This document shows, in pieces, positions 11,497-13,473 of a stretch of 64,000 nt of DNA; positions within the stretch are counted from its first letter, which is position 1; each line of letters begins with the position of its first letter. The DNA comes from Xanthomonas hortorum (GTDB lineage Bacteria > Pseudomonadota > Gammaproteobacteria > Xanthomonadales > Xanthomonadaceae): contig NZ_CP101417.1 in NCBI RefSeq assembly GCF_024339125.1, positions 62,001 through 126,000 of the forward strand. Reading direction: 5' to 3'. The notes under the pieces are model-generated. The model saw only the letters and a list, made by a program, of their open reading frames with translations, was not told the origin of the DNA and ran no database searches. A program made the translations under genes and the position numbers.

Positions 11497-13473
11497 TCAA
11501 CGTTCCAGTTCAAGAAACTCGAGGACATGGCGCGCCAGCGCCTCTACATTCTCACCATCGGCGTGAAGATGGATCTCCGGCGCTTCCGGTGCCTCGTACG
11601 GCGAATCGATACCGGTGAAGTTGGGAATCTGCCCGGCCCGCGCCTTGCGGTACAAGCCCTTCACATCGCGCGCCTCGGCGACCTCGAGTGGAACGTCCAC
11701 AAACACTTCGACGAATTCACCCTGGTCGAAGCGCTCGCGCGCCAGTTGCCGCTCGGCACGGAACGGCGAGATGAAGCTCACCAGCACGATCAGGCCGGCA
11801 TCGGCCATCAAGCGCGCCACCTCGGCCACGCGGCGGATGTTTTCCACGCGGTCTTCGTCGGTGAAGCCCAGATCGCGGTTGAGCCCGTGGCGCACGTTGT
11901 CGCCGTCCAGGATGAAGGTGTGATAGCCCAGCGCATGCAGGCGCTTGTCGATCAGATTGGCAACGGTGGATTTGCCCGCGCCCGACAAGCCGGTGAACCA
12001 CAGCACGCGCGGGGTCTGGCCCTTGATGCGCGCACGCGCGGCGCGATCCACATCCAGATGCTGCCAGTGCACGTTGCCGGCGCGGCGCAGCGCGAACTCC
12101 AGCGTGCCGGCGGCCACCGTGGCATTGCTCTGCCGGTCGATCAGGATGAAACCGCCCAGCACGCGATTGCGCGCATACGGCGAGAACGCGATCGGCTCGT
12201 CCAACGCCAGATTGCAGTAGCCCACTTCGTTGAGCTCCAGCCGCTTGGCGGCCAGCCGCTCCTGCGTATTCACATCGACCTTGTGCTTGATCTCGCTGAT
12301 GCTCGCGGTGACCGTGCGGGTGCCGATCTTGAGCCAGTACGGGCGGCCCGGCAGCAACGCGGCATCGTCCATCCACAGCAGGTGCGCGGCGAACTGGTCG
12401 GCCACTTCCGGCGGATCGTCGACCGCGGCAATGATGTCGCCACGGCTGATATCGATCTCCTCGCGCAAGGTCAGCGTGACCGCCTGGCCGGCGCGCGCGC
12501 TGTCCACCTCGCCGTTGGCATCCAGCACCGATGCCACCTGCGTGCGCCGCCCGGACGGCACCACCACCACGGCATCGCCAACCCGCACCTGCCCGGCCGC
12601 AATGGTGCCGGCATAGCCACGGAAATGCTGGTTGGGACGATTGACCCACTGCACCGGCAAGCGGAATCCGCTGCCCGCTTCCGGCGCCTCCAATTGCACG
12701 GTGTCGAGATGCTGCAGCAGATGCGGACCGCTGTACCACGGCATCCGCGCCGAGGCGCTGGACAGATTTTCGCCATCCAGTGCCGATAGCGGAATGCACT
12801 GCACATCGGCAATGCCCAGCTGCGCGGCCAGCACGCGATAGGCATCGGCGATCTCGGCGAAGACCTGTGCGTCGTAGTCCACCAGATCCATCTTGTTGAC
12901 CGCCAGCACCACATGCCGGATGCCCAGCAACGACACGATGTAACTGTGCCGGCGCGTCTGCGCCAATAATCCCTTACGCGCATCCACCAGCACCACCGCG
13001 ACATCGGCGGTGGATGCGCCGGTGGCCATATTGCGCGTGTACTGCTCGTGCCCGGGGCAATCGGCCACGATGAACTTGCGTTGGTCGGTATCGAAATAGC
13101 GATACGCCACATCGATGGTGATGCCCTGCTCGCGCTCGGCGGCCAGGCCATCCATCAACAACGCATAGTCGATGCCCTCGCCCTGCGTGCCGTGCCGGCG
13201 GCTATCGCTTTCCAGTGCCGCGAGCTGGTCGTCGAACAAGCGCTTGCTGTCGTACAACAAGCGCCCAATCAACGTGCTCTTGCCGTCATCCACGCTGCCA
13301 CAGGTGATGAAGCGCAGCAGCGGCTTTGATTCGTGTTGATGCAGGTAGGCGCCGATGGCGCCGGGATTCGGGAGTGGGGAATGGGGATTGGCAAAGGCAG
13401 CTGCTTCCCCCGTTCCGTCCACGGCGAACCGCTGTTGCGAATCTTCAATCCCCACTCCCGAATCACTGCCCAT
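11497..13473 (-). CDS. cysNC: Bifunctional sulfate adenylyltransferase GTPase subunit / APS kinase (CysN-CysC fusion)
   Basis: 658 residues. The N-terminal CysN domain is the GTPase that drives sulfate adenylation by CysD; the C-terminal CysC domain phosphorylates APS to PAPS. CysN motifs: P-loop GSVDDGKS (59-66), DCPGHEQ (138-144), NKMD (193-196), then EF-Tu-like barrel domains to about residue 480. CysC has its own P-loop GLSGAGKS (495-502) and the DGDNVRHGLN segment. The ATG shares one base with the cysD stop (TGATG), so the start is well defined. Residues 1 to about 40 do not look like any CysN N-terminus and are encoded by an inverted pair of GGGATT-type repeats (see the repeat entry). 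The end lies about 120 bp downstream of the RND adaptor start on the same strand, with no obvious terminator between. Confidence 0.96.
   Translation of the reverse strand: MGSDSGVGIEDSQQRFAVDGTGEAAAFANPHSPLPNPGAIGAYLHQHESKPLLRFITCGSVDDGKSTLIGRLLYDSKRLFDDQLAALESDSRRHGTQGEGIDYALLMDGLAAEREQGITIDVAYRYFDTDQRKFIVADCPGHEQYTRNMATGASTADVAVVLVDARKGLLAQTRRHSYIVSLLGIRHVVLAVNKMDLVDYDAQVFAEIADAYRVLAAQLGIADVQCIPLSALDGENLSSASARMPWYSGPHLLQHLDTVQLEAPEAGSGFRLPVQWVNRPNQHFRGYAGTIAAGQVRVGDAVVVVPSGRRTQVASVLDANGEVDSARAGQAVTLTLREEIDISRGDIIAAVDDPPEVADQFAAHLLWMDDAALLPGRPYWLKIGTRTVTASISEIKHKVDVNTQERLAAKRLELNEVGYCNLALDEPIAFSPYARNRVLGGFILIDRQSNATVAAGTLEFALRRAGNVHWQHLDVDRAARARIKGQTPRVLWFTGLSGAGKSTVANLIDKRLHALGYHTFILDGDNVRHGLNRDLGFTDEDRVENIRRVAEVARLMADAGLIVLVSFISPFRAERQLARERFDQGEFVEVFVDVPLEVAEARDVKGLYRKARAGQIPNFTGIDSPYEAPEAPEIHLHADGENVEALARHVLEFLELER
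13363..13464. repeat. GGGATT-type repeat, inverted pair inside the cysNC 5' coding region
   Basis: A 16-base unit at 13365-13380 recurs as its exact reverse complement at 13449-13464; the left copy is followed by further GGGGA(A/T)T-like units to 13392. The pair lies within cysNC and encodes about residues 4-9 and 28-37 of the protein (DSGVGI and ANPHSPLPNP). The same unit with one mismatch is found at 36478-36493, and related sequence at 16411-16528. A stem of at least 16 bp with a 68-base loop could form in the mRNA just after the start codon. Confidence 0.85.

What the first reader, a model, noticed from the sequence alone, without database searches (positions are those of the whole stretch)
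13363..13464. An inverted GGGATT-type repeat encodes part of the CysNC N-terminus
The start codon of cysNC is fixed by its TGATG overlap with cysD, yet the first 40 or so residues do not look like CysN and are largely encoded by two inverted copies of a non-coding-type repeat (16-bp perfect arms). A mobile or expanding repeat thus appears to have been absorbed into an essential metabolic enzyme, adding a peptide and an mRNA stem right after the start. The same repeat occurs between other genes in this window.
Basis: partly seen in the sequence, partly recalled or inferred. Interest (0 to 1): 0.7.

Follow-up and report, generated by a model that had tools for sequence, protein, structure and literature searches.

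The report
Gene-end hairpin repeat inside CysNC
In Xanthomonas, a DNA hairpin repeat that normally lies right behind the ends of genes sits in frame at the start of the sulfate-activating enzyme gene cysNC in all 34 species genomes that could be read, so it is predicted to be translated into a tail of usually about 37 residues whose amino acids drift almost freely; if so, overlapping genes would be a place where non-coding repeats become protein.

Summary
Codons 2 to about 38 of cysNC consist of two inverted heptamer arms (16 bp perfect) and a spacer, a close variant of the known Xanthomonas GGGANTN repeats. Such pairs sit at stop codons: 26 of 27 examined in this genome, against 7.6% of random placements. 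Here the stop is that of cysD, which overlaps the cysNC start (TGATG), so the element falls inside the reading frame. All 34 Xanthomonas genomes with a readable junction have an in-frame extension. Of 98 other family genomes read, 66 have a short junction, 16 a heptamer element and 7 another palindrome; the tree needs about nine changes. In 12 of 34 no other ATG/GTG/TTG start exists, so the tail should be translated there. The tail drifts (dN/dS 0.79, core 0.13) while heptamer letters stay fixed, so constraint lies mainly on the nucleic acid. A second element is in frame at the RsmH C-terminus. Unit type (GGGATT, GGGACC, GTGATT) changes while sites persist. I infer a junction hairpin tying cysNC translation to cysD; this is untested, and a tolerated passenger is nearly as likely.

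The parts
13473..14381 (-). cysD, sulfate adenylyltransferase small subunit; its TGA stop is 13475-13473
   Evidence: ORF; NCBIfam CysD, TIGR02039, E 5.6e-147
11497..13473 (-). cysNC, sulfate adenylyltransferase large subunit fused to adenylylsulfate kinase, 658 aa
   Evidence: ORF; NCBIfam NF004035, 1084.5 bits over residues 38-656
13471..13475 (-). TGATG overlap of the cysD stop and the cysNC start
   Evidence: sequence; a start overlapping the cysD stop is open in 34 of 34 Xanthomonas junctions, as TAGTG in 3 of them
13482..13487 (-). GAGGGG, a likely Shine-Dalgarno sequence 8 nt before the cysNC ATG
   Evidence: read from the sequence; function not tested
13435..13469 (-). 5' arm of the element in the mRNA (G-rich heptamers, the fourth one worn)
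13395..13434 (-). spacer of the element; between Xanthomonas species it differs by 0.41 per site (columns 45-76 of the junction alignment)
13360..13394 (-). 3' arm of the element in the mRNA (C-rich heptamers)
16411..16528 (+). second heptamer pair, filling the gap between cysJ (stop 16405-16407) and cysI (ATG 16531)
   Evidence: cysJ and cysI identified

Best explanation
A hairpin repeat of the kind that sits right behind gene ends in Xanthomonas lies in frame in codons 2-38 of cysNC, apparently because cysNC starts on the stop codon of cysD, and it likely acts in the mRNA as a post-stop hairpin that ties cysNC translation to ribosomes arriving from cysD. Shown by calls: the element begins on the fourth base behind the cysD stop, as 26 of 27 such pairs examined lie at a stop; an in-frame extension is present in all 34 readable Xanthomonas junctions; the overlapping codon is the only ATG/GTG/TTG start in 12 of them; the peptide drifts while the heptamer letters are conserved. 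Inferred: that the full tail is made in this strain, that the hairpin forms in the cell, that it slows termination on cysD and hinders independent initiation on cysNC, and that this is why the letters are kept. I put about 0.9 on the origin (gene-end repeat captured by an overlapping start) and about 0.4 on the coupling role.
For: Placement: 26 of 27 against 818 of 10800 random placements. Presence: 34 of 34 Xanthomonas; 66 of 98 other family genomes have a short junction. Among non-Xanthomonas genomes whose repeats were counted, 10 of 11 filled ones have 95 or more GGGATT matches (G063, a worn copy, has 20) and 11 of 11 short ones have 17 or fewer. Start. Constraint: dN/dS 0.79 in the extension against 0.126 in the core; unit positions 1-4 and 6 differ by 0.081 and 0.041 in the two arms, the spacer by 0.408. 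Hairpin: z -5.75; in 170-nt contexts z -4.08 in G000, -4.53 in G026, -3.14 in G119; other unit types (GGGACC, GTGATT) keep complementary arms. A second in-frame case at an overlapping junction, RsmH. Post-stop structures fewer than 16 nt behind a stop lower translation in E. coli (Liang 2015, not read; quoted in passages of PMC12306157).
Against: No expression or ribosome data. In G015 the 170-nt context gives z -0.13 (it cuts the element). The AUG is less open in Xanthomonas (mean 0.28) than at short junctions (0.48), but not in the 16 other filled junctions (0.55). Unit position 7 pairs in only 52 of 124 cells; G001 and G016 have arms that disagree at position 5; the covariation excess (0 of 500 shuffles reach it) is confounded by kinship. 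The conservation would also follow from conversion among copies. Three of 16 non-Xanthomonas elements (G131, G073, G128) are not in frame from the overlap. G136 has 130 GTGATT matches yet a short junction. 22 of 34 Xanthomonas genomes, this one included, have some internal start, and databases list shorter forms. Rehm et al. state that they could not identify a regulatory role for these repeats (passage).
Confidence: 0.45

Rival explanations
1. Tolerated passenger: the element lands or is copied behind stop codons, stays in cysNC because its length is a multiple of three and its units carry no stops, and has no role; its letters stay alike by conversion among the many genomic copies.
For: Three non-Xanthomonas elements broke the frame and a later start is available; the peptide drifts; other palindromes sit at the same junction in 7 of 98 genomes (by eye); unit types change in place; in-frame palindromes are known in Rickettsia (passage of PMC10969869).
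Against: Kept in 34 of 34 Xanthomonas with the same length in 31 although the spacer differs by 0.41 per site. No conversion was demonstrated.
Confidence: 0.37
2. Translation starts inside or behind the element, which is then a leader or ribosome-binding region rather than coding sequence.
For: 22 of 34 genomes have an ATG, GTG or TTG inside the extension; database entries of 652, 650, 641, 637 and 636 aa exist; PMC3733652 argues this for many N-terminal REPs (passage).
Against: 12 of 34 have no such codon; internal starts do not share one place; the frame is open in 34 of 34; rarer start codons were not considered.
Confidence: 0.1
3. The working part is a G-quadruplex, as proposed for the repeat in general.
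For: Four or more C-tracts in the 3' arm (G-tracts on the template strand) in 26 of 34 Xanthomonas junctions; oligonucleotides of the repeat form quadruplexes in vitro (PMC4692102 abstract).
Against: Four G-tracts in the 5' arm in only 11 of 34, not in this strain (2); the GTGATT copies of G144 and G119 have neither (fixed slices, approximate for G026, G015 and G024).
Confidence: 0.05
4. The peptide tail itself has a function in CysNC.
For: Fixed length in 31 of 34; dN/dS below 1 in spacer (0.61) and right arm (0.73); third codon positions vary most in the arms (0.12 against 0.04 and 0.02).
Against: dN/dS 0.79 overall and 1.08 in the left arm; G026, G015 and G024 have tails of other sequence and length.
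Confidence: 0.03

Closest known systems
Xanthomonas GGGNATC/GGGAATC heptamer repeats (Rehm et al. 2015, PMC4692102; first part, section 10 and passages seen)
   Same: Heptamer GGGANTN, about four units, convergent inverted pairs (70-75 per genome there), close behind stop codons, 7-11% at least partly inside ORFs.
   Different: This copy lacks the GGGAATC seed of their definition. They treat it as a simple repeat and quadruplex; here it is a fixed in-frame part of one gene across a genus, and GGGACC and GTGATT relatives occur. Their main text has no match for cysN or cysD; supplements were not readable.
Rickettsia palindromic elements (RPE; passage of PMC10969869)
   Same: Palindromic repeats in frame inside unrelated metabolic genes that stay open.
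   Different: RPEs are described with a conserved peptide; here the peptide drifts and the place is the gene junction. No sequence comparison was made.
REP elements, GTAG and CGTC types (passages of PMC3733652 and PMC12306157)
   Same: Abundant palindromes near gene 3' ends, sometimes inside ORFs; in E. coli those within 15 nt of a stop are reported to stall ribosomes.
   Different: About 105 bp built of heptamers, no GTAG or CGTC tag seen at its ends by eye; RAYT genes not searched.

Membership tests
Xanthomonas GGGAATC repeats (Rehm 2015) | Heptamer tandem of at least two units of the form GGGANTN | tested here: met
   Units GGGATTC GGGAGTG GGGAATG GGGATTG at 13363-13390
Xanthomonas GGGAATC repeats (Rehm 2015) | At least one exact GGGAATC unit | tested here: not met
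   Absent from this copy; present in orthologous copies such as G001 and G016. So: same kind, not a strict member.
Xanthomonas GGGAATC repeats (Rehm 2015) | Place just behind a stop codon (typical, not defining) | tested here: met
   Arm starts on the fourth base behind the cysD stop; 26 of 27 pairs at a stop
G-quadruplex element | Four G-tracts of three or more on one strand | tested here: inconclusive
   This copy: 2 on the mRNA strand, 4 on the template strand; Xanthomonas 11 of 34 and 26 of 34; GTGATT copies none
REP (GTAG/CGTC) | 20-40 bp palindrome tagged GTAG or CGTC | tested here: not met
   Element about 105 bp, no tag seen by eye; definition from passages of PMC3733652
REP (GTAG/CGTC) | RAYT transposase in the genome | not tested
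   No search made
Rickettsia palindromic elements | Sequence kinship with an RPE family and a conserved encoded peptide | tested here: inconclusive
   Peptide not conserved (dN/dS 0.79); kinship not compared
MITE | Terminal inverted repeats with target-site duplication | tested here: inconclusive
   Inverted arms present; no duplication could be read off by comparing filled and short junctions

The most novel reading that the evidence does not exclude
The heptamer hairpins are a self-renewing mobile class aimed at gene ends in this family: sites persist while the unit alphabet is swapped copy by copy (GGGATT, GGGACC, GTGATT) with both arms together, and at overlapping operon junctions the hairpin is written into whichever protein has no gap beside it, as the CysNC N-terminus and the RsmH C-terminus, using units that carry no stop in any frame.
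Probability: 0.3. Interest if true: 0.75.

Novelty: new variant of a known kind. Interest (0 to 1): 0.55.

Why it matters
It gives a natural test set for how repeats become protein: one junction seen short, filled with three unit types, or filled with unrelated palindromes, across about 130 genomes. It separates constraint on the peptide (little) from constraint on the nucleic acid (strong). It bears on what the abundant Xanthomonas heptamers do: the GTGATT copies keep arms but not G-tracts, which favours hairpins over quadruplexes. It would also explain why databases disagree on the CysNC start.

Tried and rejected
Rejected: an ordinary CysN N-terminus (short junctions in 66 of 98 relatives read). 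Rejected for 12 of 34 genomes: an ATG/GTG/TTG start further down (rarer starts not considered). Weakened: quadruplex; selection on the peptide. Rfam: over 13000-16800 nothing near a gathering score; weak miRNA matches at 13362-13468 (best 30.1 bits against a cut-off of 168) reflect only a long hairpin.

Other TGATG+heptamer sites: of the loci held (one match per genome, plus 20 places fetched), only cysNC had both a well-scored ORF ending at the TGA and one starting at the ATG. Most matches listed were not fetched, and that list was itself cut. L270, L276, L283, L291 and L306 have a scored ORF of 262-510 codons from the ATG through the heptamers without such an upstream ORF; these were not followed.

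Covariation was positive against shuffles but confounded by kinship, and fails at unit position 7. The one genome-contig scan kept 80 loci, mostly distant genera. Among them X. chitinilytica (L040, not one of the 34) has an in-frame extension with worn heptamers and Pseudoxanthomonas Root630 (L041) another repeat with a later start. Paper searches and the passage of PMC12320835 gave nothing used. Labels H/R/E/O for the tree were set by eye; the tree is a quick one of 109 rows (98 family genomes, 11 of 34 Xanthomonas) and warns of long branches, G128 among them. Where a genome had two CysNC-like hits, I read one.

Full report
What is there. cysNC runs on the - strand from 13473 to 11497 and begins on the stop codon of cysD. 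Codons 2 to about 38 are an inverted repeat: arms 13435-13469 and 13360-13394 around a 40-nt spacer, 16 bp perfect. The arms are heptamers of the type GGGANTN, four per arm, one of the 5' arm worn. The RNA is predicted to fold into one long stem that also pairs the AUG, z = -5.75. CysN models and the solved CysN begin at residues 37-53. The genome is a Xanthomonas; over residues 1-60 an X. hortorum protein is identical.

The repeat. It is abundant: 363 matches to GGGATTNGGGATTNGGGATT with up to 2 mismatches in this genome against 7 for the control. Rehm et al. 2015 (PMC4692102; I saw the first of eight parts, section 10 and passages) describe it as a simple repeat with quadruplex potential, with 70-75 inverted pairs per genome, close behind stop codons. 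Strictly, this copy lacks their GGGAATC seed. By eye, many pairs share an inner motif beside the arms of the type CGYAARAGC...GCTYTTGCG, so the stem runs past the heptamers.

Placement. I took the 25 pairs other than cysNC listed (the list was cut at 3.35 Mb) plus the two pairs of the window. In 26 of 27 the stop of a gene running into the element lies within 40 nt of it or inside it; 818 of 10800 random placements in the same loci do so (genes called by a codon-usage script trained on the window). The exception is rsmH, the second in-frame case. The cysJ-cysI pair begins 3 nt behind the cysJ stop.

The junction across the family. Of 35 Xanthomonas genomes, 34 have a readable junction; G028, 81% complete, gave none. 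All 34 are open from the overlapping start; 31 measure exactly 173 nt from the cysD stop to the P-loop codons, the others 203, 209 and 332, in the same frame. Of 119 family genomes searched, 105 had a match, 100 of them outside Xanthomonas; I read 98 (G145 and G104 matched only further down the gene). By eye: 66 short junctions (26-128 nt, all 66 with a start overlapping the cysD stop), 16 heptamer elements, 7 other palindromic repeats, 9 other long ones. Of the 16, 13 are in frame from the overlap, one of them worn (G063); G131, G073 and G128 are not and would start later. On a quick CysNC tree the heptamer label needs 9 changes, at least 6 forced by well-supported branches; gains and losses cannot be told apart. 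In group g11, G144 and G119 are filled while G044 and G093, without any match to the three unit patterns, are short. Against a simple rule, G136 is rich in GTGATT (89+41) and short.

Is it translated? In 12 of 34 the overlapping start is the only ATG, GTG or TTG before the P-loop; in 31 of 34 none lies behind the element, and in three only TTG at leucine codons. Three genomes have TAG for the cysD stop and GTG for the start, keeping the overlap. But 22 of 34, this strain included, have some internal start, and databases list 636-652 aa forms beside 658. Translation of the full tail here is strongly suggested, not proven.

What is constrained? In the 31 equal-length sequences dN/dS is 0.79 in the extension (left arm 1.08, spacer 0.61, right arm 0.73) and 0.126 in the next 900 nt. 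Unit positions 1-4 and 6 differ by 0.081 and 0.041 in the two arms, the spacer by 0.408. These arm columns are low at all three codon positions (0.040, 0.024, 0.120), the third being highest, so some amino-acid constraint is not excluded. Position 5 switches between A and T mostly in both arms together, though G001 and G016 disagree; position 7 pairs in 52 of 124 cells. Paired cells and double changes exceed all 500 shuffles (902 against 878; 34 against 22), which kinship alone could cause. Selection on a hairpin and conversion among copies both fit.

Unit types. G026 and G015 carry GGGACC units in both arms and G024 a longer GGGACC composite; G144 and G119 carry GTGATT units. All five genomes hold many repeats of that type (84+ matches each), but G025 and G117, also rich in GGGACC, keep GGGATT units here. 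In G015 a worn GGGAAT arm lies beside the GGGACC element. At cysJ-cysI, of 16 genomes read, G024, G025 and G026 have GGGACC units, eight others GGGATT- or GGGAAT-type pairs (G029 worn), G144 and G119 a one-sided array, and G062, G044 and G093 none. So sites persist while types change site by site.

A second protein. In rsmH (TIGR00006 covers residues 17-315 of 347) the C-terminus is encoded by an element just before the stop that overlaps the next start (ATGA; the next gene is ftsL by recall). Of 19 genomes: 8 of 8 Xanthomonas (shortened in G024) and G142 have it, 7 have a short end, G136 and G078 a long end that may be a worn element, and in G119 my motif was not found. GGGAWTN units with C, G or T at position 7 have no stop in any frame of either strand; A there brings TAG, and GTGATT units bring TGA. 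So where genes overlap, a gene-end element has to enter one of the two proteins, and its commonest units allow that.

How it likely works. Structures fewer than 16 nt behind a stop lower translation in E. coli (Liang 2015, not read; quoted in passages of PMC12306157). Here the arm starts on the fourth base behind the cysD stop. I infer that ribosomes finishing cysD are slowed, open the stem base and restart at the overlapping AUG, while free ribosomes start poorly. Folding agrees for Xanthomonas (mean chance of an unpaired AUG 0.28 against 0.48 at short junctions) but not for the 16 other filled junctions (0.55). This is untested, and the passenger reading is a close second. One database names the X. 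oryzae protein RaxQ; its role there is recalled, not looked up.

Literature. Searches in an open-access library showed no paper on this repeat in CysN of Xanthomonas (the one hit, a rhizosphere metagenome, was seen as a listing only); subscription papers and supplements were not searchable. In-frame palindromes are known (passages on RPE, and on GTAG/CGTC REPs), so I call this a new variant of a known kind.

Noticed in passing
L177:1064-2107 (G000:C1:2458663-2459706, outside the window): The C-terminal end of RsmH is encoded in frame by an inverted heptamer element just before its stop, in 8 of 8 Xanthomonas tested and in G142.
   Followed up: partly
window 16408-16530: The cysJ-cysI gap is filled by an element; in the 10 Xanthomonas genomes read its length is 108, 123, 141, 144 or 162 nt, all multiples of three although the gap is not open in frame here; G144 (103) and G119 (77) break the rule. 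Unexplained.
   Followed up: no
L135, L208, L206, L134, L227, L258, L224 (cysD-cysNC junction): Other palindromic repeats sit at the same junction in G096, G075, G042, G148, G069, G102 and G048, among them GTAGGAG-type REPs (G096, G075); only that of G075 is in frame from the overlap.
   Followed up: partly
database entries P0019, P0054, P0064, P0080: Annotated CysNC starts differ between close Xanthomonas strains (652, 641, 637, 650 against 658 aa), probably because annotation programs choose starts inside the element.
   Followed up: no
L019 and L026 (G006, G007): Sister sequences on the CysNC tree carry quite different elements (arms of opposite A/T state and unrelated spacers), which suggests exchange of the junction between lineages.
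   Followed up: no
G011:C6:3709703-3711672: The cysNC match is split over two frames in this genome; assembly error or true frameshift not decided.
   Followed up: no
window 26220-26327: A second strong inverted repeat of other sequence (28 nt, 96% complementary, 52 nt apart).
   Followed up: no
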